DNA of 64,000 nucleotides from Longimicrobiales bacterium (lineage in GTDB: Bacteria; Gemmatimonadota; Gemmatimonadetes; Longimicrobiales; Gaopeijiaceae), in contig JAQWPM010000012.1 of assembly GCA_029245345.1 (NCBI GenBank), positions 620,001 to 684,000 of the forward strand, written 5' to 3'. Each line of letters begins with the position of its first letter. The first letter of the stretch is position 1. The notes below the pieces were generated by a model that saw nothing but the letters and a program-made list of their open reading frames with translations, was not told the DNA's origin and searched no databases. A program made the translations under genes and the position numbers. Below, piece by piece: positions 5,770-53,443 of the stretch.

Positions 5770-6620
5770 ACACCACGGTCACCGAGGACCGCCTTCTCGT
5801 GGTTTCGGACGTCCATCTCGGGAACCGACTCCACCGGCCTCGCCGCTCGTTCATGGACTTCCTTCATTTCGCCATCGAAAACAACTACTCCATCTGCATC
5901 AACGGCGATGGCGTGGACATCCAACAGATGGCCTTGTCCCAACTCACGGGCGACCTGGCGGCATGTACGCCCCTGTTTCTCAAGTTCGGGGCGACCGATC
6001 GCAAGATCTACCACACCGTGGGCAACCACGACATCGTGCTGGAGCACTTCCTCAGCGACATCGGCCGGCTGACCGTGGTGCCTTTCCTGAACGTGCATTG
6101 TGGGGACAAGCGGATCCGCATCGAGCACGGCCATATGTACGACGGGATGTTCCTCAAATTCCCCCGTACATATTCGGTGTTCACGTTCATCGGCTTGCTG
6201 GCTATCAGCGTGAGCCCCGCGTTCTACGATCGGGTCCATGACCTCAACCTCGCCATCATCGGCTTCGCCGAGTTCCTTCTGTCCGGGTTCAAGACCAAGG
6301 CGCAGCGGAACAAGGACCGTCCCGGTGAGGTGATCGAGGGAGAACGCGACTGCTTCCGCCAGGGTGCTGAGGAGGTCGGTGCCCGTGGCTTCGACACGGT
6401 GATCTTCGGGCATACGCACCTTGCCGGCACTGTGCGTCTGTCCTCGGGCGCCCGCTACTACAACACAGGTGGGTGGTTCTCCAAGCCGCACTGTGTCGCC
6501 ATCTCGAACGGACAGGAGTGGTTTGGGTCGGTGGAGGAGCTGACCCAGAACGGGGACCCGTTTCCCGCTGCCGCACCCAAGGACGACCACACCCATTCAG
6601 AGGTCCAACAGAGCGCATGA
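5766..6620 (+). CDS. Metallophosphoesterase, LpxH-like
   Basis: This protein of about 284 residues has the calcineurin-like metallophosphoesterase motifs in order: SDVHLGNR (about 14-21), NGDGVDI in place of GDxxD, VGNHD (about 87), a GHTH-type motif (FGHTHLAG) near 220. Overall layout resembles UDP-2,3-diacylglucosamine hydrolases such as LpxH, with a hydrophobic insert (FTFIGLLAISVSPAFYDRV) that could contact membrane lipid. The first Asp pair reads NGDGVD, which keeps the metal-binding Asp. The start overlaps the previous stop (ATGA), and the stop overlaps the next start in the same way. A lipid-phosphate substrate fits the lipid-oriented neighbourhood but is inference. Confidence 0.75.
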   Translation: MNTTVTEDRLLVVSDVHLGNRLHRPRRSFMDFLHFAIENNYSICINGDGVDIQQMALSQLTGDLAACTPLFLKFGATDRKIYHTVGNHDIVLEHFLSDIGRLTVVPFLNVHCGDKRIRIEHGHMYDGMFLKFPRTYSVFTFIGLLAISVSPAFYDRVHDLNLAIIGFAEFLLSGFKTKAQRNKDRPGEVIEGERDCFRQGAEEVGARGFDTVIFGHTHLAGTVRLSSGARYYNTGGWFSKPHCVAISNGQEWFGSVEELTQNGDPFPAAAPKDDHTHSEVQQSA

Positions 6621-9600
6621 GCAACCTGGCCACACCCATCGAACAGTTGGCGAGGGAGTACGACGTGGTGGTGGTGGGGTCGGGCTACGGCGGGGCCATC
6701 GCCGCCAGCCGCTTTGCGCGGGCAGGACGCCGCGTGTGCCTCCTCGAACGCGGCGAGGAGCGTCACCCCGGGGACTTCCCCGAGAACTCGGCAGAGGGGC
6801 TTCGGGAGATTCAGGCGGATTCGCCCGACCGTCGGATCGGCTCCTCGACAGCGCTGTTCGACCTCCATATCAACCCGGACATTAGCGTGCTGTCCGGATG
6901 CGGGCTCGGGGGTACGTCGCTCATCAACGCCAACGTCGCCATTCCTCCGGACGAGCGGGTGTGGGCCGATCCACTGTGGCCCGACGCGATCCGCGCGGAC
7001 GTCCAGCATGGGGTCGCCCAGGGTGTCCGGCGTGCCCAGGAGATGCTCCGCCCCACGCCCCTACCGTCGGATCAGTCTCCTCCGAAGCTCCAGGCCATGG
7101 AGAAGTCGGCTCAGGCCATGGGCGCCAGGTTCGAGCGGCTCCCTATCACGGTGAACTTCGAAGATCGGATCAACCACGTCGGGGTCGAGCAACCCGCATG
7201 CAACTCGTGCGGCAACTGCGTCGGCGGGTGCAACGTGGGAGCCAAGAACACGTTGATGATGAACTACCTCCCCGACGCACGGAACCACGGGGCGGAGATC
7301 TTCACGTGCACCGCCGTGCGCCGTGTGGAGCGTCGGGGCACGCGGTGGGTCGTCCACTTCGATCTGCTGGAGGCGGGTCCGAAGCGGTTCAACGCGCCCG
7401 GCCTGTTCGTGGCGGCCGACGTGGTGGTCTTGGCGGCCGGTAGCTTGGGAAGCACGGAAATCCTGCTCCGCTCGAGGGAATCCGGCCTGCCCGTGTCTGA
7501 CCGGCTTGGGGAGGGGTTCACGGGCAACGGCGATGTGCTCGGATTCGCCTACAACGCCGACCAGTTCATCGGTGGCGTGGGCGTGGGAAGCACGCGCGGG
7601 AAGAAAGGGCCCGGGCCCTGCATCACGTCGGTTATCGACCTACGAGGAACGGACCGGCTGAACGACGGGATGATCATCGAGGAAGGTGTTATCCCCTCGA
7701 CTCTCGGCCCCATTCTGGCCCCGGCGTTGCTGATGGCTTCCCGGGCGGTCGGCGAGGACACAGACGCCGGCCTGCGCGACTACGCAGAGGAGAAGTACCG
7801 GGAGATCCAGGCACTCGTGCCTGGTGGGAGCACTGGCGCCGTCGGCAACACGCAGACCTTTCTCGTCATGGCCCACGACGACTCGGCTGGCCGGATCCAT
7901 CTGGCGGATGACCGCGTTCGCATCGCGTGGCCCGGCGTGGGATCCCAGGCCGTGTTCGACAAAATCAACGGCGAGTTGCTCCGGGCTACCGCTGCCCTGG
8001 GAGGCACGTACGTCACGAACCCGCTCTGGACGAAGTTCGCCGGGAAGAGCCTGGTCACGGTCCACCCGTTGGGTGGCTGCGGCATGGGCGAGACCTCGGA
8101 GACGGGCGTAGTCGACCACCGGGGCCGAGTGTTCTCGGGGGAGTCGGGGGACCAGGTCCACGACGGGCTCTACGTCTCCGACGGGTCCGTGATTCCGCGC
8201 TCCTTGGGGGTCAACCCGTTGCTTACGATTTCCGCCCTGGCAGAGCGGACCGCCGACCTCATCGCCCGTGATCGCGGATGGGAGATCCCGTACGACCTCC
8301 CGTCTGCCCCCAGGGCCGCGTCCGTGGAGAAGCGAGTCGGCGTTCAGTTCACCGAGGCCATGAGGGGGTTCTTCTCCCTCGGGTCGGACCTGGACTTCGC
8401 AGAGGCCGCGGAGCAGGGGAAGGAGTCCGACTCGCCCCTCGAGTTCACGCTCACGGTAAACTCAGACGACCTGTACGACATGCTGCGCCGGCCGGACCAC
8501 AGCGCGAGCCTGTACGGGAGCGTCTCGGTTCCTGCGCTGTCGACGGAGCCGTTCAGCGTCACTAAGGGCACGTTCCACCTCCTGACGGTCGACCCCGACG
8601 AGGTGCGTACGCGGCGGATGACGTACAAGATGCCCATGGAGCATCCCGACGGCCGGACGTTCTTCCTGCACGGCTTCAAGCGTATCCACGATGACCGAGG
8701 CTTCGACGTCTGGTCGGACACCACCACCCTGTTCGTGTCGGTCCACGAGGGAGAAGATGAATCGGGCCCAGTGGTCGGGCGTGGCGTCCTTCGCATCAAG
8801 ACCAAGGACTTCTCGAAGCAACTCCGGACGTTCAAGATCACCAACGCCGGGGGGATCGCCCGGCGCCTGAAGGCCATGGCCGACTTCGGGAAATTCTTCG
8901 CCGGTGCCTTGTACGATACGTACGGTGGGGTGCTCGCGCCCCGCAGCACACTCGATCCGGGAGCCACGGCCAGGACGCGCAGGGAATTGGTGGTCGATCC
9001 CCCGGATGCGCACTACTTCAGTACGGCCGACGGCGTGTCGCTTCGGCTGGTGCGCTATGAAGGTGGCTCCAAGGGACCGGTCCTGCTGGTCCACGGCCTG
9101 GGCATGTCCGGACAGGTGTTCGCGGTGGATACGGTGGATGTGAACCTCGTGGAGTACCTCGCCGCGAGCGGGTACGACGTGTGGGTTCTGGACAGCCGCG
9201 CGAGCATCGACATCGCCGGCTCCGAGGACCAGTTCACGGCCGACCTCATCGCCGAGCAGGATCTCCCCGCAGCGGTGGGCAAGGTCCGCGAGCTCACGGG
9301 AGCGGCAGCGGTCGACGTGGTCGCCCACGGCCTTGGAGCGACGACCCTGCTCATGGCGATCGTGGGGGGGCTCCAGGGGGTGCGCTCCGCAGTGTGCTCA
9401 CAGGGCGGGCTCCACGTCGTCACGCAACGGGCGGCCCGCGTCAAAGCCGGACTCTACCTTCCTGGTGTGATCAAGGCGCTGGGGCAACAGTCCCTGCGCG
9501 CCGACGGGGGTGGCACCAAGGGGTGGAAGAACAGGCTCTTCGACGTGGGGCTTAGACTCCTCCCAGTCGAGCTGGAGGAACGGTGCTCAAGCCCGGTATG

Positions 9601-10012
9601 CCGACGAATCACCTTCATGTACGGACCGCTCTACGAGCACGACCAGATCAACCTGGCGACGCACGAAGCCCTTCACGAACTTTTTGGGGTCGTGAACCTC
9701 CAGGTCTTCGACCACCTCGCGCGCATGGTGCGCGAAGGGCACGCGGTGCGCGCCACCGGGGGGTCCTGGCTACGGGACCTGGACCGTCTGGCCCTGCCTA
9801 TCACGTTCCTGCACGGCGCGGACAATGCGTGCTTCCTTCCGGAGAGCACGCAGGCGACCATGGCGGCGCTGGCCGACGCCAATGGGCCGGATTTCTATCA
9901 CCACACGGTGATTCCCGACTACGGCGATATGGACTGCCTCATCGGGAAGGACGCCGCCCGCGACGTCTTCCCGCTGATCCTCGAGCACCTGGAGCGGCAG
10001 ACCTCCTCGTAG
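6617..10012 (+). CDS. GMC/cholesterol-oxidase-like oxidoreductase fused to pseudo-hydrolase
   Basis: This is a three-part protein of 1131 residues. (1) Residues 1 to about 555: FAD-binding GMC oxidoreductase, with VVVVGSGYGGAIAASRFA at 17-34, a Cys-rich loop CNSCGNCVGGC near 195-205, and the C-terminal FAD motif VHPLGGCGMG; the layout resembles cholesterol oxidase-like enzymes, which oxidise an alcohol with release of H2O2. (2) Residues about 570-775: a domain with FTEAMRGFF and DVWSDTTTLFV, clearly homologous to the separate 235-residue protein at 15028-15735. (3) Residues about 798-1131: alpha/beta hydrolase fold (LLVHGLGMSG), but the nucleophile elbow reads AHGLG (Gly905 for Ser/Cys) and the usual catalytic His position reads Asp (YGDMDCLIG, Asp1104). 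So this domain is probably non-catalytic. It is the last gene of its operon and converges on the DyP gene cluster. Confidence 0.85.
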   Translation: MSNLATPIEQLAREYDVVVVGSGYGGAIAASRFARAGRRVCLLERGEERHPGDFPENSAEGLREIQADSPDRRIGSSTALFDLHINPDISVLSGCGLGGTSLINANVAIPPDERVWADPLWPDAIRADVQHGVAQGVRRAQEMLRPTPLPSDQSPPKLQAMEKSAQAMGARFERLPITVNFEDRINHVGVEQPACNSCGNCVGGCNVGAKNTLMMNYLPDARNHGAEIFTCTAVRRVERRGTRWVVHFDLLEAGPKRFNAPGLFVAADVVVLAAGSLGSTEILLRSRESGLPVSDRLGEGFTGNGDVLGFAYNADQFIGGVGVGSTRGKKGPGPCITSVIDLRGTDRLNDGMIIEEGVIPSTLGPILAPALLMASRAVGEDTDAGLRDYAEEKYREIQALVPGGSTGAVGNTQTFLVMAHDDSAGRIHLADDRVRIAWPGVGSQAVFDKINGELLRATAALGGTYVTNPLWTKFAGKSLVTVHPLGGCGMGETSETGVVDHRGRVFSGESGDQVHDGLYVSDGSVIPRSLGVNPLLTISALAERTADLIARDRGWEIPYDLPSAPRAASVEKRVGVQFTEAMRGFFSLGSDLDFAEAAEQGKESDSPLEFTLTVNSDDLYDMLRRPDHSASLYGSVSVPALSTEPFSVTKGTFHLLTVDPDEVRTRRMTYKMPMEHPDGRTFFLHGFKRIHDDRGFDVWSDTTTLFVSVHEGEDESGPVVGRGVLRIKTKDFSKQLRTFKITNAGGIARRLKAMADFGKFFAGALYDTYGGVLAPRSTLDPGATARTRRELVVDPPDAHYFSTADGVSLRLVRYEGGSKGPVLLVHGLGMSGQVFAVDTVDVNLVEYLAASGYDVWVLDSRASIDIAGSEDQFTADLIAEQDLPAAVGKVRELTGAAAVDVVAHGLGATTLLMAIVGGLQGVRSAVCSQGGLHVVTQRAARVKAGLYLPGVIKALGQQSLRADGGGTKGWKNRLFDVGLRLLPVELEERCSSPVCRRITFMYGPLYEHDQINLATHEALHELFGVVNLQVFDHLARMVREGHAVRATGGSWLRDLDRLALPITFLHGADNACFLPESTQATMAALADANGPDFYHHTVIPDYGDMDCLIGKDAARDVFPLILEHLERQTSS

Positions 10013-10045: not shown

Positions 10046-10981
10046 TCAGAACTTGCTGGCGTGGCACTGAGTGCACGAGAAGGGCGGCAGGCCGACGGGT
10101 GCCCAGAGCTCGGGGTTCCGGTTCAAATACGTCGCGTAACGCGCCTCGAGGTCCTCCGAGAGACGCGATTCCAACTCGTCCTTGTGCTTCCACCGGTCGT
10201 AGTTGACGCCCAGGCGGGCGTTGAGGTAGGCCCGCTTGGCTGCACCTAGATGGCCTCCCTTCACGAGCAGGTCGCCCGTGATCAGCCAACTACCCTCGAA
10301 ACCGTGCGGAACGCGCGGCGACCCCCAGCAGAAGCCCTCGGGCATCGCTTCGGTGGGCAGCCGCACTAGATCTGTGAAGTCCGGGTTGTCCCGGTCGACG
10401 GGCACTCCGGCACAGTACTCCCAGAACTTGAAGCCGGCCTCGATGGCGTTTGCGGTGACCGTGTCGTCGGCCGCGGCGAAGCGGCGGATGTGCATCTGCT
10501 GGAAGAAGCCCACCTCGGGTACATACTTGGCAGCGCTGTCCACGAGCGCGCTCCCCTGGGCCCGGTCGAAGCCGGTTTCGAAGAGGAAGGCGCCCAACAG
10601 ACCGCTGGCCCCCGGCCCGTTCCGGTCGTCGTTGAGGATGACGTCGAAGAAGCTCTCCAGAATCAAGGGAATCGCCTGAGCGACGACCTGAAGCCCGTTG
10701 ACCGTTTCTGGACGAGCCACCTCTCCCAGCCACCAGAGCGCGGTGGCTCCGAGCAGGAACGTGGTTCGATGGTTCTCGGGGTCCTTGTCGTGCAGTTCCC
10801 ACAGCTCTCCGACGAAGTCCCCGGCCGACGCGTAGTCGTCCCGGTTCATGGCGTCGAAGAGACGTGCCTCCACGTCGACCACCGGATCCGGCCCGGTGAT
10901 GTCGTCGCCACAAGAAGCGACGACGAGGGCGCCGAACATGGCGACCACGATCACCAAAACACGAACGATCCAAGACTTCAT
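10046..10981 (-). CDS. Lipoprotein with C-terminal CxxCH motif
   Basis: This 311-residue predicted lipoprotein begins with a hydrophobic signal and lipobox (LVVASC, Cys24). The body is alpha-helical and looks TPR-like or like a secreted all-helical fold; I do not recognise a named family. The last nine residues hold CTQCH (Cys303, Cys306, His307), the covalent haem-attachment motif of c-type cytochromes, only four residues before the end. It directly follows the DyP peroxidase gene (start one base from that gene's stop region), which suggests it serves the same pathway, perhaps as electron donor or docking protein. Haem attachment is not proven: the distal ligand is not obvious. Confidence 0.7.
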   Translation of the reverse strand: MKSWIVRVLVIVVAMFGALVVASCGDDITGPDPVVDVEARLFDAMNRDDYASAGDFVGELWELHDKDPENHRTTFLLGATALWWLGEVARPETVNGLQVVAQAIPLILESFFDVILNDDRNGPGASGLLGAFLFETGFDRAQGSALVDSAAKYVPEVGFFQQMHIRRFAAADDTVTANAIEAGFKFWEYCAGVPVDRDNPDFTDLVRLPTEAMPEGFCWGSPRVPHGFEGSWLITGDLLVKGGHLGAAKRAYLNARLGVNYDRWKHKDELESRLSEDLEARYATYLNRNPELWAPVGLPPFSCTQCHASKF

Positions 10982-10982
10982 A

Positions 10983-12413
10983 TCAAAAGTCCGCCAACCA
11001 GCGAAGCGCGGCCATGCTCGGCTGGAATAGGTATTCGCCCCCCCGCAGGGTTACGAAGCGGGGTAGAGGCGTGAGGAAGAAGGGGGGCTTACCGGGGATG
11101 GTCATCTTGCCGGATTCGTCCGCCGGACATCCAATGAGGGGGTCCTTATCGGGGCCGACGCCGAAGGGGTCGCCATCGTCCAACCACAGGCTCTGGATGG
11201 TCTCGAATTGACGCCAGATGCTGGTGTTGAAGCACACGAAGACGAGTCCCCGGTCCTGCCCGTCGTCCGCGGCCCCCTTGGGCAGCACCGGGCCGTAGGA
11301 ACGCCCACGCCGGATGATGCGGTGCCTGTTGGTGAGCCGCCCACCGAAGAACCCCTCGGAATCACGCGGGTGACAACGTCGGATATGCGACCCCATGGGG
11401 CACTTGAGCCCCTTGGGATCGTCCATGTACGAGAAGTCGTTGATACGTAGCGGGTCCGCGGACACGTCGGCGTCCGGCGCCTCCGGAGAGGTGCTCAGCG
11501 GGGTGCCGTCGCGCCACCGCCCCACAACCTTGGCAGCGAGCATCTCCGCTCCGCCCGGGTAGCGCGCCCCCTGCTCCTCCATGGACCTCCTGAACGCAGC
11601 GGTGTGTTGTTGCAGCTTCCGGTAGACCATAAACGTACCGTTCCGATGGAACGGCTCCGCGGGAGCGTCGGGAAGGGTGCCGTCCTCGTCCACGTACCCG
11701 AGCACGAACTCCCCGGTGGCCACGTCCCGCCAACCGCCTGCACCGTTGGGCTGGCCGTCGCCGGGCCGCCCCTGGACCCCGGTTCCTTCCACGGCGGGCT
11801 GCGAGATGCCGTCAAAGAAGCCGAAGTGATCACGTCCGTGCTTGAGGGCCTCCGCCCGGGTCTCGTTGATCACCGTTGTGGCGCCCGCGGAGGCTCCCAC
11901 CTGCCGCAACTCCTCGCGCACCGCGTCCAGGTGCTCGTTGTCCACGGCCCATACCGTCACGAGCACGTGGGCCTCTCCGGTCCCCAGACCGGACTCCCAC
12001 TGCTCCGGGGCACTGGGACCGCGATCGCCGAGGGATTCGGCCCGGGCGGCCATGCCTTCTCGGAACTCCTCCGGGAACGTAGCCAGCATCTCGTCGGGAA
12101 CACCCAGGCGCTGAAGACCCGCATACGTGAAAGCGACCTGGATGGCCGTGGTGGGGGCGGTGTCGCACCAGGGCTGACCCGTCGTGATACGGGGGAGCAT
12201 CCTGTCGATGAGTGCCTTGCCTTTGGCCACGTCATCGATGCGGAGGAAGATGTACGCCGCCATCGGGTGGGAATACCCGCGCAGCACGTTCCCCTGGATG
12301 TCGGCGGCTTCGACCTCGGACTGCTCTTCGTGGCGTCGTGGAAGATTGAGGGGGCGACGCTGCAGAAGGGGTCGCTCCCCACCGGAACCTACGGCCTGCC
12401 GACGTTTCTGCAT
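10983..12413 (-). CDS. DyP-type haem peroxidase
   Basis: This peroxidase of about 476 residues belongs to the dye-decolorizing family. The distal signature GxxDG is present (FGFFDGISQP, about residue 197) and the proximal haem His is in MGSHIRRCHPRD (about 343). C-terminal stretches VFVCFNTSIWRQFETIQ and PPFFLTPLPRFVTLRGGEYLF match the family. No signal peptide or Tat motif is evident, so it is probably cytoplasmic. I chose ATG 12413: it overlaps the upstream stop (ATGA), and residues N-terminal to it in the longer frame fall inside that gene. DyP enzymes use H2O2 to oxidise bulky substrates; the convergent GMC oxidase could supply it. Confidence 0.92.
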   Translation of the reverse strand: MQKRRQAVGSGGERPLLQRRPLNLPRRHEEQSEVEAADIQGNVLRGYSHPMAAYIFLRIDDVAKGKALIDRMLPRITTGQPWCDTAPTTAIQVAFTYAGLQRLGVPDEMLATFPEEFREGMAARAESLGDRGPSAPEQWESGLGTGEAHVLVTVWAVDNEHLDAVREELRQVGASAGATTVINETRAEALKHGRDHFGFFDGISQPAVEGTGVQGRPGDGQPNGAGGWRDVATGEFVLGYVDEDGTLPDAPAEPFHRNGTFMVYRKLQQHTAAFRRSMEEQGARYPGGAEMLAAKVVGRWRDGTPLSTSPEAPDADVSADPLRINDFSYMDDPKGLKCPMGSHIRRCHPRDSEGFFGGRLTNRHRIIRRGRSYGPVLPKGAADDGQDRGLVFVCFNTSIWRQFETIQSLWLDDGDPFGVGPDKDPLIGCPADESGKMTIPGKPPFFLTPLPRFVTLRGGEYLFQPSMAALRWLADF

Positions 12414-12970
12414 CAGATACCCTCCACGAAGGTTGTACGAAACCGCTTCTGCAGCTCCACTGCGTCCACCCCTTGATTGGCGATCGCGAATTCCAGCACC
12501 TGCTCGCGTAGGGCGAGACTGTCCACCACATCGGAAACACTGCGGTTGGGGGACGCCACGGCGAACAGGGACGTGTGCAGCTGGTTGTGCCGGATCCAAT
12601 GGCCGAAGGCTGCGCGGTCCTTCAAGCCGGGATACCCAACGCAATGGCGCCACCAAGAGTCCGCCGCCGCCGGTAGCTTGTCGGCGATGGAAGCCAGGAA
12701 GACATCAAGATCCGCGCCATCGAAGGCCGCCGTGAACACCAGGTAGTTCGAACGGAGTTGGTCCCGCTTTTGCGGGGCTCCTTGGTAGACCAGGTGGTCG
12801 ACAATCTGGATGCGTGATGTGTGGATCGTTCCGAGCCGCGCCAGTGGAGAGTCCTCTCCGAGGGGGAGACTCTCGATGGTCTGACGAAGCTTCTCTTCGT
12901 GGCCCGGAAGGATCGCAGTCAGGACGGTGAGCGCGTACGCGGTTCCCGTGCGGTTACGCGATTCCCCCAT
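12413..12970 (-). CDS. Small FDG-motif protein, ferredoxin-like fold (2)
   Basis: This 185-residue protein has an N-terminal half with the rhythm LTVLTAILPGHEEKLRQTI ... LARLGTIHTSRIQIVD ... YLVFTAAFDGADLDVFLASI. This looks like a dimeric alpha/beta-barrel (ferredoxin-like) fold, the same fold class as DyP domains. The C-terminal part (WWRHCVGYPG) has no assignment. It is a paralogue of the next upstream gene: both share RDxL-N/Y-Y-L and FDG in the same places. No haem ligand or catalytic residue can be picked out. Overlaps the DyP gene and the upstream gene by four bases each, so the three are almost certainly made together. Confidence 0.7.
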   Translation of the reverse strand: MGESRNRTGTAYALTVLTAILPGHEEKLRQTIESLPLGEDSPLARLGTIHTSRIQIVDHLVYQGAPQKRDQLRSNYLVFTAAFDGADLDVFLASIADKLPAAADSWWRHCVGYPGLKDRAAFGHWIRHNQLHTSLFAVASPNRSVSDVVDSLALREQVLEFAIANQGVDAVELQKRFRTTFVEGI

Positions 12971-13581
12971 CAGAGGTGCCCCTGTACGCTGGAGAGGAAC
13001 TGCTCATAGCGCACCTTGAACTCGTCCGCGCCGAGCCTCTCCGAGTCCGCTATAAGCCCGCCCAAGGCGTCGCCGGTGGCCAGCGCGCCCTTCACCATCC
13101 GCGTGCTCGCCTGCGGGTACCCGCAGTAGTAGCTGCCCCCATCCATGCTGTTCATGGCGATCCACTTCTTCAACGGCTCCGCGGGGGGTGGGCTCGGGAA
13201 CGCGAAACCGCGGCCCCAGACGAACCGGATGTCCAGAGGGATGCAGTACGCGAACGCATCGATGTAGTGCTGCCATGGCCCATCGAAGTTGCTCTCGAAG
13301 AACAGGTAGGCGTAGTTGAGCCGGTCCCGCTCCTGAGGTGGGCCGTTGTGGGGGAGGTCCCGCACGATGGTCCAGCGCACGAACCGGATGAAGTTGAACT
13401 GGAGGATGTGCTTCTGCGCGAACGGGATCCATTTCGCCACCCACATCGCCGCTGCCAGCACAGGCACCCATTGCCTGCGGATGGGTGTAAAAAGCGTCAG
13501 GCAGAAGATCCTACCGAGTTGGTTGCCGGGCAACGCCGTGGTGCCTCCATCCCGGGCGTCGGGGCTCTCGATCGTCGTCAT
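12970..13581 (-). CDS. Small FDG-motif protein, ferredoxin-like fold (1)
   Basis: This 203-residue protein shares order and motifs with its downstream neighbour: CLTLFTPIRRQWVPVL, FIRFVRWTIVRDLPHN, LNYAYLFFESNFDGPWQHYI and a GYPQ segment matching the neighbour's GYPG. The shared FDG sits in the expected third strand/turn of a ferredoxin-like repeat. A hydrophobic stretch near residues 30-50 (WVPVLAAAMWVAKWIPFAQ) could pack on a membrane. I do not know a characterised member. The pair probably arose by duplication and may act as a heterodimer. The upstream gene ends 13 bases before its start. Confidence 0.7.
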   Translation of the reverse strand: MTTIESPDARDGGTTALPGNQLGRIFCLTLFTPIRRQWVPVLAAAMWVAKWIPFAQKHILQFNFIRFVRWTIVRDLPHNGPPQERDRLNYAYLFFESNFDGPWQHYIDAFAYCIPLDIRFVWGRGFAFPSPPPAEPLKKWIAMNSMDGGSYYCGYPQASTRMVKGALATGDALGGLIADSERLGADEFKVRYEQFLSSVQGHL

Positions 13582-13594
13582 AGAGCGTGTCTCC

Positions 13595-15031
13595 TCAGCG
13601 TCCGTGCCACAGCTTGTCGTGGGCCGCCTGACGCTCGTACTGAGCCTTGTCGTAGTAGCGGTCGTAGTACTCCATCTCCAGGTGTGAGAACTGGAGCCAC
13701 ATGCCCGGCGTGTAGAAGGCGTCGACGTGGGCAGGGAAGCGTCCGTACGTATCGTAGATGTAGTTACACATCTCCTTCACGTACTCGACCTGCCTGGGCG
13801 CGAACTTCGTGGCCTTCTTCATGTACTTTCCAGCGCTGGCGCGGTCCTTGTACTGCCGCGAGAACACGTCCTCGTCGCCGTACGCGCCCCCGGCGGCGCT
13901 GTACTTGGCCTCGATGACCCGGTCCACCGCCTCATCCATGGACTTCACGTAGGGAGGTGTGAGGCCTTCCAGGATGCCGTCGATGCCGATGGGGTTCGGC
14001 TGTGAAGCCGGAACCGGAGCCCACGGCGACAGCGTGTTCGGTTGCTGGAACCGGAAGCCGAGTCCATGCAATCCCTTGGCGGGATCGTCCTGGAAGACGT
14101 ATGGCGGGAAGACGGATCCGTGGATCCAACCGCCCAAGCCCATGGCCTGCCCCACCAGCATGAGGTTCTGGAAGTAGAAGAACGCCTCATAGTCCGTACG
14201 TAAGGCCCCGCCGAAGCCCAGGGGGGCGACGTTGTCCTTGTTGACGAACCCGTTGCGCACCCACTTGAGGCCCCCTATGGGGTGATAGGGAACCTTCTCG
14301 GCCATTCCCAGGGTGCCCGCGAGCTTGGCCATCCGCTCCACGAGGCCCTTGGGGTGGAACGTGCGCCAGTCGTCGACGAAGATGGGGCGTTTTCCGTCCG
14401 GTTCGCTGGCGATGATGAGCAGCGCGTTGATGTACTGCGAGGTGCAGTCCACGACCGGGAAGAGGACGGTGGACCCGGGGACGTTGGACATCTGTGCGTT
14501 CCAACCGAGGTAGTACGGCCACTCCCGGGGGAACTCCATGCGCCGGTCTGAGACGCGAATCTTGCAACTGTCGGCCGCACGGATCCAATCGCTTTCGCTC
14601 CAATCGGCCCATCGGGGGGGCAGCGATGTGAGCAGCGCAAGAGCCTCCTTGCCCGTCGGATGCCGAAGCAGAAAAATCCCGTCGTCGTTGATCATGAAGA
14701 AGTGCGTGGCCTGGCAGTTGTCCGCGCTACTTCCCGTGCGTGCCATGATGTGGAGGAAGGGTGTCCCGAGCTCGTCGGTCCCGTCGGCCTTGGTGAGGGG
14801 TCCGTCGTGCGTGGTGACGCCGGTGATTCCCGTCACGCACGTGATCAGGATCGCTTCCTCGAGCGCCGACAATGGCGCCGGGTCGTTCTTGCTCTCGTGG
14901 GAGAGGGGTCCGGCCTTCATCGATGTGCCGCGGGCCAGGCGTCGCGTGCGCCGGTCGACCAACGCCGACATTAAGGGATACTCGAAGAGGTCGTTCAGGC
15001 TGCCGTGCTGGTGTCCGTTCTCGGTGCTCAT
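13595..15031 (-). CDS. Unrecognised 478-residue protein
   Basis: I cannot assign this protein. It has no signal peptide. The N-terminal third (LEEAILITCVTGITGV, HFFMINDDGIFLLRHPTG) faintly recalls nitroreductase-type sequences, where an arginine-rich start precedes a helix and a flavin pocket, but I would not rely on it. The centre is rich in Trp, Phe, Pro and Gly (FGGALRTDYEAFFYFQNLML, GGWIHGSVFPPYVF), and the C-terminus is helical and Tyr-rich (YIYDTYGRFPAHVDAFYTPG, MEYYDRYYDKAQYE). It lies inside the peroxidase gene cluster, overlapping the upstream gene by four bases, so a function with those proteins is likely. Confidence 0.75.
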   Translation of the reverse strand: MSTENGHQHGSLNDLFEYPLMSALVDRRTRRLARGTSMKAGPLSHESKNDPAPLSALEEAILITCVTGITGVTTHDGPLTKADGTDELGTPFLHIMARTGSSADNCQATHFFMINDDGIFLLRHPTGKEALALLTSLPPRWADWSESDWIRAADSCKIRVSDRRMEFPREWPYYLGWNAQMSNVPGSTVLFPVVDCTSQYINALLIIASEPDGKRPIFVDDWRTFHPKGLVERMAKLAGTLGMAEKVPYHPIGGLKWVRNGFVNKDNVAPLGFGGALRTDYEAFFYFQNLMLVGQAMGLGGWIHGSVFPPYVFQDDPAKGLHGLGFRFQQPNTLSPWAPVPASQPNPIGIDGILEGLTPPYVKSMDEAVDRVIEAKYSAAGGAYGDEDVFSRQYKDRASAGKYMKKATKFAPRQVEYVKEMCNYIYDTYGRFPAHVDAFYTPGMWLQFSHLEMEYYDRYYDKAQYERQAAHDKLWHGR

Positions 15032-15735
15032 GCTTCTTCCTCCAGGGGCGTGGGTCGAGACGTGGCTGCAGAATGCGCATCCGGGTCGGACGCGCTCGGT
15101 CGGGCGAAGACACCCCCGTAGACCTCGGTCAAGGCGCCCATGAAGAAACTCCCGAACTTTGCCATGGCCTGAAGTTCCTGGAGCTTGTTGCGCGCGCCCA
15201 CGGCTTTCATCGTACCAAGTTGTTTCCTGAAATCGTTGATGAGGATCTTCACGATCCCCTTGGCCACCACCGGCCCCGCCTCGTCACCCTCCCTGACCGT
15301 GACGAAGAGCGTCGTCGTGTCCGACCAGATGTCGGGGCCCGCATCGTCATGGATGGTCTTGAATCCGTCCATGTAGAAGTGTCGACCGTCATCGGCTGAC
15401 AGGGGCATGTGGTAGATCATCTTGCGAGTACGGGCCTGCTCGGGATCACGCACGAGGAGGAAGAAGCGACCCTTCCCCACCCGGAGGGGCATCGGTGAAA
15501 GGGCCGGCGCGGTCACGGTGCCGCTCAGGAGCGCTTCGTGATTCGGATCGGCAATCAGCGCGTCGACGTCGGGTGCGATCACGGTGACCGTGAAGTCGAG
15601 GAGGGAGCCCTCGGCCTTTCCCGTGGCCCAACCCGTTTCGTAGTCGTCGGTGGCGTGGGTCGACACGAACCCGCGCATGGTCTCGGTGAATGTGACGCCG
15701 GCGGCGTCTGACTTCGTGTGCTCGTCTGCTGTCAT
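15028..15735 (-). CDS. Standalone copy of the GMC-fusion middle domain
   Basis: This 235-residue protein aligns by eye along its length with residues about 570-775 of the GMC fusion at 6617-10012. Shared landmarks are FTE(T/A)MRGF, GTV/SVSVPALS, PLRVGKGRFFLL against FSVTKGTFHLL, HMPLSADDGR, FKTIHDDAG, DIWSDTTTLFV and the closing FFMGALTEVYGGVFA. The pattern is beta-rich in the middle with a helical end. Function is unknown. One copy fused to an oxidase and one free copy in the peroxidase cluster suggest a binding or assembly module used by both. It begins 20 bases after the TolC-like gene on the same strand. Confidence 0.78.
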   Translation of the reverse strand: MTADEHTKSDAAGVTFTETMRGFVSTHATDDYETGWATGKAEGSLLDFTVTVIAPDVDALIADPNHEALLSGTVTAPALSPMPLRVGKGRFFLLVRDPEQARTRKMIYHMPLSADDGRHFYMDGFKTIHDDAGPDIWSDTTTLFVTVREGDEAGPVVAKGIVKILINDFRKQLGTMKAVGARNKLQELQAMAKFGSFFMGALTEVYGGVFARPSASDPDAHSAATSRPTPLEEEA

Positions 15736-48951: not shown

Positions 48952-49074
48952 ATGCCTAACCTTATGAAGACCACCATCGAGATCTCTGACGCACGGCTAA
49001 ACGCCCCCAAGGAGCGAGCAACCGCACAGGGCACTCACGGCCGGACTGAAAGCCGAAGGGAACTAGCCGCATGA
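48952..49074 (+). pseudogene. Antitoxin-like ORF (VapB-type), probably decayed
   Basis: Forty residues: the core MKTTIEISDARLNAPKER matches the DNA-binding beta-strand and first helix of VapB-type antitoxins. The C-terminal half (GTHGRTESRRELAA) no longer looks like the usual toxin-binding helix. No toxin gene follows. Instead the stop overlaps the start of the GMC small-subunit gene (ATGA). ATG 48964 is an equally good start. Confidence 0.5.
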
Positions 49075-49655
49075 CCCAAGACCGCAGAACGTTCCTTAAG
49101 CGCACCAGCGCTGCGCTAGGCGCCGTCGTTGTCGGGCCTGCGTTACCGATGGATGGGGCGGACCACGAAAGACAGGTCCGCCGCCTCGATCCCGCGCTCC
49201 TCCGCTCCGTCGCAGAGGTTGTCCTTCCTTCGGAGCTGAGCGCAGGGGCCCGGGAGGAAGCCGTGGCGGACTTCGAATACTGGGCAGACGAATACGAACC
49301 CGTCGCTGAGATGAACCACGGGTATGGTACAGATGTGATTCGGTATGGCCCTCCGGACCCCATCCCCGCCTGGACCGCCCAGCTCGCAGCCCTTCAGCTC
49401 GAAGCACAGCAACGCTCGAGCACCGGCTTCGCCGACCTGGATATGGACGCTCGGCGCACACTCTTAGAAGGACAAACCCTCGACACCGACGATGGCCTCC
49501 CAAGCCCTCTGCGTGCCCAGCACATCGCGGTCGCGCTCATGGCGCACTGGTTCCGTTCACCTGACGCCATCGACCGCTGCTATGATCGCCGCATCGCGGA
49601 GCGTCGCTGCCGAAGTATCGATACAGCGCAGGCTGAACCGGAGCGCCGAAGATGA
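49071..49655 (+). CDS. Gluconate 2-dehydrogenase subunit 3-like, Tat-exported
   Basis: This 194-residue small subunit begins with a Tat signal (DRRTFLKRTSAALGAVV). Its helical body (LLRSVAEVVLPSE, HIAVALMAHWFRSPDAIDRCY) matches the gluconate 2-dehydrogenase subunit 3/gamma family. Such subunits piggy-back the FAD subunit across the membrane. It overlaps the GMC gene by four bases. The usual separate c-type cytochrome subunit is absent here. Confidence 0.82.
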   Translation: MTQDRRTFLKRTSAALGAVVVGPALPMDGADHERQVRRLDPALLRSVAEVVLPSELSAGAREEAVADFEYWADEYEPVAEMNHGYGTDVIRYGPPDPIPAWTAQLAALQLEAQQRSSTGFADLDMDARRTLLEGQTLDTDDGLPSPLRAQHIAVALMAHWFRSPDAIDRCYDRRIAERRCRSIDTAQAEPERRR

Positions 49656-51262
49656 GCGCGCGACGCACGCGTCAGGTCGAGACCGATGTTCTCATCATCG
49701 GGGGCGGCATCTCCGCGGCGATGGTCGCCGAGAAACTCACCGCGAACACGGATGACAACGTCCTGATCGTCGAGGCTGGCCAGCACTCGACCCCGACGGA
49801 CCAGCGCGCCCGCGCTCGCCAGCGGTACATCGATTACGGCGAGAATCCGTGGCACAACGACCACATCGACGACCAACACCCGATGGGAATCATGTCCCGG
49901 TCTATGGCGGTCGGGGGCCAGGCGCTCCACTGGGGCGGCACGGTGCCGCGCTACAGCCCGGAAGACTTCCAGCTGCAGTCGACGTTCGGTGTGCACGAGG
50001 ACTGGCCAATCACGTACGACGACCTCGACCCGTACTACCAAGAGGCCGAAGAACGCATGGGGGTGTCGGGCATGCAGGGCCCGAGTGCACTCGATCCGCG
50101 TGGGGCACCCTACCCCATGCGGCACGTACCGCTGACCTGGACGCTGGAACGGCTTCAGGAATGGATCGAGGGCGCCGATATCCCGATCTGGGCGAATCCG
50201 GTCGCGAAGAACACCGAGCCGTACAACGGACGGAACGTCTGCGCACGCTGCGACACGTGTAACATCTGCCCAACGGGCGCGAAGTACTCGCCGGACTTCA
50301 CCTTCGCACAACTCTTGGCCGCGGAGCGCATTCGGCTTCAGACAGGCACGCTCATTCGGCGCCTCGAGCTCGAAGCCGGCTCGGATCGCATTCTCGCAGC
50401 CATTGGACGGAGCTACGACGATCCGGACACAGACATCGTGTACCGGGCTCGCAAGTTCGTACTGGCGGGCGGGTATACGTGGTCGCCACATCTCCTCATG
50501 TTGTCTGCCAACGATCGATTCCCGGACGGGCTCGCTAATTCATCCGGTACCCTGGGTCGCTACATGACGGGCCACCGCGCAGTGAGCGCGACGGTCGAGC
50601 TGCCCATGCGGCTCCTGCCGGGCATGTACTACGGTCACAGCCTGATCTCGAAGTACTTCCAACGCCCTCAGCTTCCCGGCGGGCCGGGGCTCTCTAATGG
50701 GCGCTACGTGCGCAGTGACTTCCGGGTCTGGGAGTCCGCAACGGGACGGGGGCCACGCATGCGAGGGTCCGACGGCCAACTGATGTTGGGCGACGAGGTC
50801 ATGGCGGACTGGCGGTCGCGGACAGCCACGGGCACCGCCCGGCTCCGTTCCTACTACGACGTGATCCCGGACCGCTCGAGTCGTATCGTTCTGGACTCGT
50901 CTCGGAAGAACCGATTCGGTGACCCGATGCCCAATCTGGAATTCGTGGACGCGCCTGTGTCTCGTGACCTACGGGCGCACACCGAGGACCGGCTGAGTGA
51001 GAACTTCGAGCGCGTAGCGCGGGCTGGTGGCGGACGGGTTCTGCGGACCTCCGTCGACTCGACTCAGGACCACCCGGCAGGAGGTTGCCGCATGGGCGAC
51101 GACCCCGGCACGAGCGTCGTCGATTCATGGGGCCGCGCACACGATCACGAAAACCTCTTCGTGGTTGGTGCACCGACGCACGTGTCCGGTGGATGTAACA
51201 ACGGCACGCTGACGTTCTCGGCTCTGTCGCTGCGGGCGGCTGAGGAGATCGGGCGGGGGTGA
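49652..51262 (+). CDS. GMC oxidoreductase (FAD dehydrogenase large subunit)
   Basis: This 536-residue flavoprotein has the FAD-binding start TDVLIIGGGISAAMVAEKL, GGQALHWGGTVPR, and the C-terminal HPAGGCRMGDDPGTSVVD and GGCNNGTLTFSAL. A Cys-rich loop, CARCDTCNICPTGAK, is like the Fe-S cluster region reported in FAD-glucose dehydrogenases. It has no signal of its own and should be exported with the Tat-bearing partner. It probably oxidises a sugar, gluconate or alcohol and passes electrons to the quinone pool or the nearby cytochromes. Confidence 0.86.
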   Translation: MSARRTRQVETDVLIIGGGISAAMVAEKLTANTDDNVLIVEAGQHSTPTDQRARARQRYIDYGENPWHNDHIDDQHPMGIMSRSMAVGGQALHWGGTVPRYSPEDFQLQSTFGVHEDWPITYDDLDPYYQEAEERMGVSGMQGPSALDPRGAPYPMRHVPLTWTLERLQEWIEGADIPIWANPVAKNTEPYNGRNVCARCDTCNICPTGAKYSPDFTFAQLLAAERIRLQTGTLIRRLELEAGSDRILAAIGRSYDDPDTDIVYRARKFVLAGGYTWSPHLLMLSANDRFPDGLANSSGTLGRYMTGHRAVSATVELPMRLLPGMYYGHSLISKYFQRPQLPGGPGLSNGRYVRSDFRVWESATGRGPRMRGSDGQLMLGDEVMADWRSRTATGTARLRSYYDVIPDRSSRIVLDSSRKNRFGDPMPNLEFVDAPVSRDLRAHTEDRLSENFERVARAGGGRVLRTSVDSTQDHPAGGCRMGDDPGTSVVDSWGRAHDHENLFVVGAPTHVSGGCNNGTLTFSALSLRAAEEIGRG

Positions 51263-51381
51263 GGACTCGACGCAGCGCGCGCCATGTGGCACATACATCC
51301 ACATTTAACATCTTTATGTACACAGGCGTCAAAGGTCCGGAAGGGGAGGTGCGAACCCCACATCAAGAGAAAGGCGAGAAA

Positions 51382-52194
51382 ATGCGAATGAGACGATCCG
51401 GCTTCACCCCAGTCGGGATGGCCCTGGCCGCCGTAGTGGCGATCAGTGCATGCGACAGTATGACCGGAATCGAGTCGATTGATGATCCGGTACTGCGCGA
51501 CATGGCCCTCGTTGCGGCTGACGCTGCGCTCGAGGACGTGAACACCTGGGCTCAACCGTTCGGCTTCGGGGCACCCGGTGCCGAGATGGGACGCGCGATG
51601 GGAGGACCCGGAAAGGCGGTGGGTCGAGCCGGTGGCCGCCGTGGATTGGGCCATGCAGGCTCGGGAACCGTCGAGAGGACCTTCTACGATGCGGTCGGTA
51701 ACGAACAAGCCGAATTGGACGACCTCACGACCGAACGAATCGAGGTCGTGACCGAGGTAGGCGGTGATGTCAGTCGCGAGAACTGGGCCGCCTCGGTCTA
51801 CCGAGTGCGAACCATGACGCTCACTGGGCTGGAAGGTGAGGAAACCCACCGTACGGTGAACGGGACAGGCGAGAGCAAGATCAGTCGCAGCCGGCACACC
51901 GACGAGGGTAACCGTTCGTACGAGATGACCGGCTCGATCACCTACAACGACGTGGTGGTGCCCATTCCGGGCTCCGACCCGCGTTACCCGATTTCTGGCA
52001 CGATCACTCATGCTATGGAGTCGACGCGGACGGATGCAGACGGCACGGAGACGAAGTCGATGACCATGACGATCACGTTCGATGGTGACGAAACAGCTAG
52101 CGCTGTTGTGAACGGTGAGTCGGTGGAGATCGATCTAACGACTCGCGAGGGGCGTCACCCTTTCCGGGGAAGAGGGGGTAAGTCGGGCGGCTGA
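51382..52194 (+). CDS. Lipoprotein of unknown function
   Basis: This protein of about 270 residues has a lipobox (VVAISACDSM). A Gly/Arg-rich linker (GGPGKAVGRAGGRRGLG) is followed by a beta-rich domain (TLTGLEGEETHRTVNGTG, MTMTITFDGDETASAVV). I do not recognise the family. ATG 51382 has an AAGGCGAGAAA ribosome site; a longer frame starts at 51259 without one. It is followed by a terminator, so it may be a single-gene unit. Confidence 0.7.
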   Translation: MRMRRSGFTPVGMALAAVVAISACDSMTGIESIDDPVLRDMALVAADAALEDVNTWAQPFGFGAPGAEMGRAMGGPGKAVGRAGGRRGLGHAGSGTVERTFYDAVGNEQAELDDLTTERIEVVTEVGGDVSRENWAASVYRVRTMTLTGLEGEETHRTVNGTGESKISRSRHTDEGNRSYEMTGSITYNDVVVPIPGSDPRYPISGTITHAMESTRTDADGTETKSMTMTITFDGDETASAVVNGESVEIDLTTREGRHPFRGRGGKSGG

Positions 52195-52220
52195 TCGCCG
52201 ACTGATTCTCGGTCTTCATG

Positions 52221-52257
52221 AGGGGCGGTGGGCTTCGGCCTGCCGCCCCTTTTGTTT
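52221..52257 (+). terminator. Rho-independent terminator with TTCG loop
   Basis: AGGGGCGG (52221-52228) pairs with CCGCCCCT (52243-52250), and an inner stem closes on a TTCG tetraloop. A short T-rich run (TTTTGTTT) follows. It lies about 25 bases after the lipoprotein stop. Confidence 0.88.
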
Positions 52258-52326
52258 CGCCCCTCTCCCGCCCAGAGAAGCTACTTGTCGCCTACCTCGT
52301 ATTCACGGCAGACCCTGTCCACGACC

Positions 52327-52331
52327 AGGAG
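52327..52331 (+). promoter_or_regulatory. Shine-Dalgarno before an ATC codon
   Basis: AGGAG ends seven bases before ATC at 52339, where the downstream frame begins its family-like residues. This is ideal spacing, but the start codon position holds ATC rather than ATG. Confidence 0.45.
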
Positions 52332-52338
52332 TAGCACG

Positions 52339-52662
52339 ATCAGCGATCGTAGATACTCCGATGAGGAGTTCGCCCTCGTTGTAAGGAAGGCGAGCGAACT
52401 TCAGCAGCCCGGCAAAGAGGGGACTGGTGGGCTCACGCTCGCCGATATGAAATCGGTGGGCCAAGACGTGGGTATTGATGCCGAGCTCATTGAACGGGCG
52501 GCCTCTCTCGTGCCGCAAGCGGCCGCCGACTCTGGCATCGCAGGCTCTTGGGTGGACCGATCAGGCACCTCCGCGCACGAGGACCGACCACCCCTCTCTG
52601 ATCTGTTCGCCATCGAACACGCGGTCGGGGGTCAGCAGCACAGACTCCTGTGCCGAGGCTGA
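52339..52662 (+). pseudogene. Fragment of a small regulatory-type protein, start lost
   Basis: The frame opens at ATC as ISDRRYSDEEFALVVRKAS and continues GLTLADMKSVGQDVGIDAEL. This helical N-terminal module recurs in many bacterial proteins of this kind, where it begins with Met. After about residue 65 the sequence becomes unrelated (RSGTSAHEDRPPLSD) and stops at 52662. I read it as a truncated gene with a mutated start. The remaining gap to 52894 shows no further gene. Confidence 0.5.
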
Positions 52663-52894
52663 TCCAAGCGAGACAAATACGATAAAGACAGCAGCAAACA
52701 GGCTACACATGGAGTGTCCTCAGCTTCATAAAAGTGGGCGTAACACGAATCTTGGACCGGGAACCACCATCGAGCCAGCGGGCTTGCCGAATGAGGAGTC
52801 GACCCTCAGGCTAGGGTTCGTTTTTCGGCTCCCTCCCACCCGCCGGCCATCGATTCGAGTCCAGCTTCACCCCCCGACTCAATACACGACCGCT

Positions 52895-53443
52895 ATGGAC
52901 GAGGAAACACAGAACCCACCGGTACAGCCGCGCCGAACCTTCTTGGCGGGCATGAGTGCCGTCTTCGTCGGGACCGTTGCCGCGCTCGTGCCGGTCTTGT
53001 CAGGTGCCACGTCTCTCCTGGACCCTCTCCGACGCAAACGGAATGAGGCGGGAATGAGTCGGGTGACCACACTGGCCGTACTCCCCAACGACGGCACACC
53101 GAAGAAATTCACGATCACCGCGGACCTCACCGACGCGTGGACGATCCACCGCGACGCACCCATCGGGGCGGTCTATCTGCGAAAGGTCGGAGAGGACGTA
53201 CACGCTCTGAACGTCGTCTGTCCGCACGCAGGCTGCTTCGTGGGGATCGCGAAGGACCGGCCCGGTTTCACGTGCCCCTGTCACAAGAGTTCGTTCGACT
53301 TGGCCGGAGTCATCGACGACCCGGCGAGTCCCAGTCCCAGAGATATGGACTCGCTGCAGGTCGAAGTGCGAAATGGTGACGAGATATGGGTCCGCTTCCA
53401 GAGCTTTCAGGCGGGCCATACCGTAAAGACCCCGGTGCAATGA
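52895..53443 (+). CDS. Rieske iron-sulfur protein
   Basis: This 182-residue membrane-anchored [2Fe-2S] protein is the Rieske subunit of a cytochrome bc-type complex. After one N-terminal helix (TFLAGMSAVFVGTVAALVPVL, with an upstream PRR), the cluster-binding boxes are CPHAGC and CPCHKSSF, giving the two Cys and two His ligands. ATG 52895 is used; a longer frame upstream is not family-like. Its stop overlaps the next start (ATGA). Confidence 0.92.
   Translation: MDEETQNPPVQPRRTFLAGMSAVFVGTVAALVPVLSGATSLLDPLRRKRNEAGMSRVTTLAVLPNDGTPKKFTITADLTDAWTIHRDAPIGAVYLRKVGEDVHALNVVCPHAGCFVGIAKDRPGFTCPCHKSSFDLAGVIDDPASPSPRDMDSLQVEVRNGDEIWVRFQSFQAGHTVKTPVQ

What the first reader, a model, noticed from the sequence alone, without database searches (positions are those of the whole stretch)
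10046..10981. Lipoprotein with a CxxCH motif at its extreme C-terminus
CTQCH lies four residues from the end of a 311-residue lipoprotein that follows a peroxidase gene. A terminal haem site would be an unusual design for passing electrons to a peroxidase; but the DyP protein lacks a signal peptide, which conflicts unless one partner is exported by another route.
Basis: partly seen in the sequence, partly recalled or inferred. Interest (0 to 1): 0.5.

Follow-up and report, generated by a model that had tools for sequence, protein, structure and literature searches.

The report
TPR lipoprotein with terminal haem motif
A membrane-anchored helical-repeat protein ends in a haem-attachment motif that is kept in all seven relatives found in other bacteria, so it is probably a little-noticed kind of cytochrome, but it looks like a local addition to the peroxidase gene cluster beside it rather than the peroxidase's electron supplier.

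Summary
In detail: the lipoprotein (10046-10981, minus strand) has CTQCH four residues from its end, and its start lies one base after the stop of a DyP peroxidase gene. Pfam and NCBIfam name no family for it. The homology is significant without the motif. Five of seven end 2-5 residues after it; two have a 25-26 residue tail. The family has a TPR-like scaffold and two more invariant cysteines. No second His or Met is invariant: a His in 6 of 6 relatives with an N-terminus is Asn46 here. A link to the peroxidase is not borne out: none of the seven homologues lies near a DyP gene in the stretches read, none of 95 distinct DyP loci has the lipoprotein, the closest DyP operon found (Solirubrobacter soli) ends at DyP, and DyP has no export signal. 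Most likely: an exported single-haem c-type cytochrome on a TPR scaffold, added locally to a cytoplasmic DyP operon. Haem binding is inferred, not shown.

The parts
10046..10981 (-). 311-aa lipoprotein with a TPR-like helical scaffold and one CxxCH at the extreme C-terminus
10061..10075 (-). CTQCH, residues 303-307; CxxCH kept in 8 of 8 aligned sequences
10910..10912 (-). Lipobox cysteine 24
   Evidence: sequence, (read by eye)
10412..10414 (-). Cys190, invariant in 8 of 8; probable disulphide partner of Cys218 (inference)
10328..10330 (-). Cys218, invariant in 8 of 8
10844..10849 (-). Met45-Asn46; the Asn column is His in 6 of 6 relatives with an N-terminus (possible distal haem ligand, inference)
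10982..10985 (-). DyP stop codon and the one base before the lipoprotein start (TGATATG), probable translational coupling
10983..12413 (-). DyP-type peroxidase, 476 aa from ATG 12413 (start overlaps the P3 stop, TGATG); GxxDG, HIRRxxPR and RxGxxYG motifs present; no signal-like N-terminus
12413..12970 (-). P3, alpha+beta protein whose relatives accompany DyP genes
12970..13581 (-). P4, related to P3 (shared homologues)
13595..15031 (-). P5, 478-aa protein without a Pfam family; 52% identical relative in the Solirubrobacter soli operon
15028..15735 (-). P6, similar to the middle part of the GMC fusion of L014

Best explanation
The lipoprotein belongs to an uncurated family of exported, often lipid-anchored proteins made of TPR-like helix pairs that end in a single c-type haem site. 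The protein is exported, anchored by Cys24, and Cys190/Cys218 probably form a disulphide. The cytochrome c maturation machinery then attaches one haem to Cys303 and Cys306 with His307 as the proximal ligand, so that the haem caps the last helix pair. The TPR surface would dock a partner and the terminal haem would exchange electrons, or bind a small ligand. In this Gemmatimonadota genome the gene was added to the 3' end of a cytoplasmic DyP operon and is probably co-expressed with it, but it works in another compartment and is not the peroxidase's dedicated electron donor. Shown: the motif, its conservation, the gene order. Supported: TPR similarity, export signal. Inferred: haem attachment, the disulphide, docking and electron transfer.
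For: Seven homologous proteins in 6 of 185 genomes, 7 of 7 with CxxCH; C303, C306 and H307 are among 19 invariant columns. With the query cut at residue 295 and every homologue cut eight residues before its motif, 7 of 7 are still found (phmmer E 1e-23 to 4e-10) and 0 of 1400 shuffled sequences, so the conservation of the motif is independent of how the homologues were found. The two residues between the cysteines vary freely (TQ, MA, MG, SI, AI, VA, SV, VV), as in c-type haem sites. TPR models match some homologues (best TPR_14 4.5e-5, TPR_19 6e-4), and a designed TPR is the best PDB match of the family profile (whole-sequence E 6.9e-5, though no single stretch passes alone). Lipoboxes are seen in the window protein, L151 and L155, other signal-like N-termini in L153, L154, L156 and L159 (by eye). 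The window encodes a cytochrome b/c fusion with two CxxCH and a Rieske protein, so the organism probably makes c-type cytochromes.
Against: No haem stain, spectrum or reliable structure: AlphaFold2 on the single sequence gave mean pLDDT 43. No distal Met/His ligand is conserved in all members; the best candidate His is Asn46 here. No cytochrome family of Pfam matches any of 8 members at E up to 1; the only NCBIfam cytochrome match is one member at 0.056. Two of seven homologues have 25-26 residues after the motif. The window protein alone has no TPR match. Three partial matches to the family profile lack CxxCH (L160, L161, L149; 48-86 profile positions; E 9e-6 to 5e-4 in a set of 257 frames). 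I read them as shared TPR similarity because they cover so little of the 322-position profile, but they are not proven non-members. Cytochrome c maturation genes were not searched for.
Confidence: 0.7

Rival explanations
1. The motif is not a haem site: CxxC forms a disulphide or redox pair, or the Cys and His bind a metal, at the end of a TPR protein.
For: Two further invariant cysteines suggest thiol chemistry in the family; no conserved distal ligand; no cytochrome family match in Pfam.
Against: The His directly after the second Cys is invariant in 8 of 8, which a CxxC redox pair does not need; an exported CxxCH normally receives haem where a maturation system exists (established knowledge).
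Confidence: 0.18
2. One reading: the terminal haem passes electrons to the DyP peroxidase.
For: The two genes are one base apart on one strand (TGATATG); DyP has its catalytic motifs.
Against: Different predicted compartments; no DyP match beside any of 7 homologues in the stretches read; no family member in 95 distinct DyP loci, by single sequence or by profile; the Solirubrobacter soli operon ends at DyP, with the next gene convergent and overlapping it by 14 bases. DyP enzymes are not known to take electrons from c-type cytochromes (recalled).
Confidence: 0.05
3. The protein is a maturation factor: a TPR chaperone (in the style of CcmI or NrfG) whose CxxCH tail takes or hands on haem or an apocytochrome.
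For: TPR domains of cytochrome c biogenesis proteins bind apocytochrome ends (established knowledge); TPR similarity and CxxCH in one chain.
Against: None of 18 neighbouring ORFs of the homologues scanned with Pfam is a maturation gene (4 of the 18 have no Pfam family, and not all ORFs were scanned).
Confidence: 0.05

Closest known systems
Class II cytochromes c (cytochrome c', c-556; Pfam PF01322)
   Same: Helical protein with a single CxxCH a few residues from the C-terminus; exported (recalled features).
   Different: About 130 aa four-helix bundle without TPRs (recalled); no PF01322 match for any of 8 members at E up to 1; the seven full-length sequences here are 311-379 aa with two extra invariant cysteines.
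TPR proteins of cytochrome c biogenesis (CcmI, NrfG)
   Same: TPR scaffold in the periplasm (recalled).
   Different: Those bind the ends of apocytochromes and have no CxxCH of their own (recalled); no biogenesis gene among 18 neighbours scanned.
DyP-type peroxidase operons with tandem P4-P3 genes (e.g. Solirubrobacter soli L069)
   Same: Same order abhydrolase-P5-P4-P3-DyP, 49-65% identity for P5, P4, P3 and DyP.
   Different: No lipoprotein follows DyP there.

Membership tests
c-type cytochromes (general) | CxxCH conserved across homologues | tested here: met
   8 of 8 aligned sequences; three short partial profile matches without it are read as TPR similarity
c-type cytochromes (general) | Export signal | tested here: met
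   Lipobox in the window protein, L151, L155; signal-like N-termini in L153, L154, L156, L159; L152 is a contig-edge fragment (read by eye)
c-type cytochromes (general) | Covalently bound haem | not testable with these tools
   needs the protein
c-type cytochromes (general) | Conserved distal Met or His ligand | tested here: inconclusive
   No invariant second His/Met; column 104 is His in 6 of 6 relatives with an N-terminus and Asn46 in the window protein. Some cytochromes c have an open distal site (recalled).
Class II cytochrome c (PF01322) | Match to the family model | tested here: not met
   No match at E up to 1 for 8 of 8 members
Class II cytochrome c (PF01322) | CxxCH near the C-terminus | tested here: met
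   2-5 residues from the end in 6 of 8, 25-26 in 2 of 8
Class I cytochrome c | CxxCH followed by a domain with a Met ligand | tested here: not met
   Only 2-26 residues follow the motif
TPR proteins | Match to TPR models | tested here: inconclusive
   At most 3 of 8 members match any one TPR model at E up to 1 (best 4.5e-5); the window protein alone does not; the family profile matches a designed TPR at 6.9e-5
DyP electron donor | Gene association beyond this genome | tested here: not met
   0 of 7 homologue regions with a DyP match, 0 of 95 distinct DyP loci with a family member
DyP electron donor | Same compartment | tested here: not met
   DyP has no signal-like N-terminus, the lipoprotein has (hydropathy only)

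The most novel reading that the evidence does not exclude
An undescribed family of exported TPR-scaffold cytochromes carries its only haem at the extreme C-terminus, with an invariant disulphide elsewhere; the relatives use bis-His ligation through a His near the N-terminus, while this Gemmatimonadota member has exchanged that ligand (Met45/Asn46) and so acquired a different haem chemistry after joining a DyP operon.
Probability: 0.2. Interest if true: 0.55.

Novelty: new variant of a known kind. Interest (0 to 1): 0.4.

Why it matters
c-type cytochromes are found in genomes mainly through a few family models, and none of those in Pfam matches this family. A single-haem protein built on a protein-docking TPR scaffold would be a simple, testable design for a partner-specific redox or sensing protein outside the cytoplasm. 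It also shows that a one-base gene spacing can mislead: comparison across loci separates the lipoprotein from the peroxidase.

Tried and rejected
Homologue searches that gave nothing usable with the window protein: Pfam and NCBIfam, PDB sequences (best E 0.42), plasmids, viral contigs, genome contigs by exact peptides. Phylum sample: 2 of 395 genomes at E up to 0.001, its own and G321, where the match lies inside a 468-aa ORF. Relatives: 1 of 59, own. Family: 4 of 121 at E up to 0.01, own plus three matches of 26-29 residues. Genomes of 30 of the 77 named DyP loci: 0 of 30; the tool warns that an empty answer without a known positive shows nothing. Phylum of G415: 2 of 199 at E up to 0.01, best 0.0026, about what chance gives over 199 genomes. 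Class of G408 (BD1-7 clade genome; recalled to be Gammaproteobacteria): 8 of 185 at E up to 0.1, namely six genomes with seven homologues (E 1.6e-23 to 1.4e-9), and two weak ones (0.086, 0.096) not counted. Family profile: 3 of 111 phylum genomes, own plus G104 (6.7e-4) and G089 (0.009) over short stretches; 1 of 1 and 1 of 5 in two small orders, both re-finding known members. Homologues against plasmids and viral contigs: none.

Check of the weak matches: the family profile was run on all frames of 60 aa or more in the 10 loci behind them (L002, L146-L150, L157, L158, L160, L161). Three give short TPR-like matches without CxxCH (L160 58 positions, L161 86, L149 48); seven give none at E up to 10. 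They were left out of the counts because of their short coverage, not because they lack the motif; a reader may weigh them otherwise.

Considered and rejected: a chance motif (8 of 8 conserved); class I cytochrome (nothing follows the motif); multi-haem cytochrome (one CxxCH in each of 8); an electron wire to DyP. The single-sequence AlphaFold2 model was too poor to use. P3 was folded with 18 sequences (mean pLDDT 77); its best PDB matches, to polyketide ABM/SchA-like domains, stay above E 0.001, so no function is claimed.

Literature: seven searches were answered. bear on the question and list no paper that, by title and abstract start, describes this family; searches added nothing. I saw listings only, except passages of PMC5371394, where a TPR protein co-transcribed with proposed electron-transfer genes of Candidatus Tenderia electrophaga is mentioned, without haem. 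The library holds open-licence papers only.

Full report
What is there. The minus-strand ORF 10981-10046 encodes 311 residues: a lipoprotein signal ending at Cys24, a body that is probably helical, and CTQCH at residues 303-307 followed by four residues. It is the last gene of a run on one strand: P6 (15735-15028), P5 (15031-13595), P4 (13581-12970), P3 (12970-12413), a DyP-type peroxidase (ATG 12413 to 10983; TIGR01413) and the lipoprotein, whose ATG lies one base after the DyP stop (TGATATG). A GMC-oxidoreductase/hydrolase fusion (6473-10012) points towards it from the other strand. The DyP has the GxxDG, HIRRxxPR and RxGxxYG motifs; neither it nor P3, P4, P5 or P6 has a stretch near its N-terminus as hydrophobic as a signal peptide (hydropathy only). 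The window probably lies in the phylum Gemmatimonadota: two genomes of its class (G140, G142) share sequence with records titled Gemmatimonadaceae and Gemmatimonadetes (L071, L095).

Is the motif more than chance? The expected number of CxxCH in the last ten residues of one protein is 9e-6. More telling is conservation. A search of 185 genomes of another class (the class of a BD1-7 clade genome) found seven homologous proteins in six genomes, E 1.6e-23 to 1.4e-9. All seven carry CxxCH: CMACH, CMGCH, CSICH, CAICH, CVACH, CSVCH, CVVCH, at 2, 5, 25, 26, 2, 2 and 2 residues from the end (L151, L152, L154, L153, L155, L156, L159). With the query cut at residue 295 and each homologue cut eight residues before its motif, phmmer still finds 7 of 7 (E 1e-23 to 4e-10) and 0 of 1400 shuffled sequences. 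So the motif was not what made them homologues, and its conservation is independent evidence. Weak matches elsewhere were checked with the family profile: of 10 loci, three (L160, L161, L149) match over 48-86 of 322 positions and have no CxxCH, seven do not match. I take the three as ordinary TPR similarity.

What kind of protein. In the alignment of eight 19 columns are invariant: G143 P155 F160 C190 R197 P200 C218 E229 G236 D237 L239 K241 G243 Y252 W264 R273 C303 C306 H307. The block around 236-252 reads like a TPR helix pair (by eye). Pfam TPR models match some homologues (TPR_14 best 4.5e-5 in 2 of 8; TPR_19 in 3 of 8), and the family profile's best PDB match is a designed TPR (6.9e-5). 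No cytochrome model of Pfam matches any member at E up to 1. Cys190 and Cys218 probably form a disulphide (inference).

The haem ligand. Besides His307 no His or Met is invariant. Column 104 is His in all six relatives that have an N-terminus (L152 is a fragment) but Asn46 in the window protein, preceded by Met45; column 305 (His226 here) is His in 5 of 8 and Tyr in 3 of 8. So relatives may have bis-His haem, while this protein may have Met, water or nothing as the distal ligand. This is an inference from sequence only.

Is it a partner of the peroxidase? The evidence is against it. In the phylum sample 25 of 395 genomes have a DyP match; I read 20 DyP neighbourhoods from 19 of the 24 other genomes, some cut short by contig ends. 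None has a homologue of the lipoprotein. The only ORF there with CxxCH within 25 residues of its end is an 88-aa one in L067 that looks spurious. In 77 DyP loci from named genomes, 4694 ORFs of 80 aa or more include no homologue and none with CxxCH within 15 residues of the end. Two of the 97 loci are duplicates. The more sensitive family profile finds nothing better than E 0.017, in a 1304-residue frame, among 11905 frames of the 97 loci. The operon with the closest DyP found, in Solirubrobacter soli (L069), has abhydrolase, P5 (52%), P4 (55%), P3 (49%) and DyP (65%) in the same order and ends at DyP, with the next gene convergent and overlapping it by 14 bases. The regions of the seven homologues (7-14 kb each) have no match to DyP or to any other protein of the window's cluster at E up to 0.1, apart from the homologues themselves. 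Their neighbours differ: cytochrome bd oxidase two genes away in L162; a glutathione S-transferase in L164; a GFA-family protein, a histidine kinase and a short-chain dehydrogenase in L165; MAPEG and CorA in L166; MalT-like regulators in L167 and L168, two copies in one genome. The only other genome of the same genus listed has no match for the lipoprotein, P5 or DyP, so the cluster may be a recent gain, or was lost or missed there.

Reading. The best-supported account is an exported, lipid-anchored single-haem c-type cytochrome built on a TPR-like scaffold, belonging to a family that Pfam and NCBIfam do not name, and attached in this lineage to the 3' end of a cytoplasmic DyP operon. Motif, conservation and gene order are shown; fold class and export signal are supported; haem attachment, ligand, partner and electron transfer are inferred. 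The presence in the same window of a cytochrome b/c fusion with two CxxCH and a Rieske protein makes it likely that the organism matures c-type cytochromes, but maturation genes were not searched for.

Novelty. A terminal CxxCH on a helical protein has a known parallel in class II cytochromes c (recalled), but this family fails that family's model, is longer and has TPR similarity. The searches of the open-licence library listed no description of it; that is a limited library.

Noticed in passing
window 12413-13581; loci L069-L145: Relatives of P3 or P4 occur in 36 of 77 DyP loci of named genomes and align to N-terminal parts of some very long DyP proteins (L064-L066). P3 folds as an alpha+beta protein with only weak ABM-like PDB matches. 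No Pfam family.
   Followed up: partly
L164 4711-5325, L165 3828-4160, L166 6511-6903: Three of the seven homologues have a neighbouring gene of a glutathione-related family: GST, GFA and MAPEG, in different orientations. It may be chance; if not, it would hint at a detoxification role.
   Followed up: no
L051/L095 7157-10222; L092 11800-13161: A DyP gene is fused to, or followed by, a cytochrome P450-like protein: L092 confirmed as PF00067; the L051 tail was recognised by eye from its haem-loop-like sequence.
   Followed up: partly
window 6473-10012 and 13595-15031; L014; L069: Relatives of the GMC-hydrolase fusion and P5 also sit side by side in another genome of the phylum (48% and 49%, no DyP in the 18 kb read); in Solirubrobacter soli only the hydrolase part precedes P5.
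   Followed up: partly
window 15028-15735: P6 is 39% identical over 208 residues to the middle region of the GMC fusion of L014: perhaps a stand-alone copy of a domain of unknown role.
   Followed up: no
window 49071-55263: Gluconate-2-dehydrogenase subunit 3-like protein, GMC oxidoreductase, Rieske protein and a cytochrome b/c fusion with two CxxCH in one run of genes.
   Followed up: no
L166 3-869 (minus strand): In the same region as homologue L155, a 289-aa protein without Pfam match has a CxxCH 19 residues from its end.
   Followed up: no
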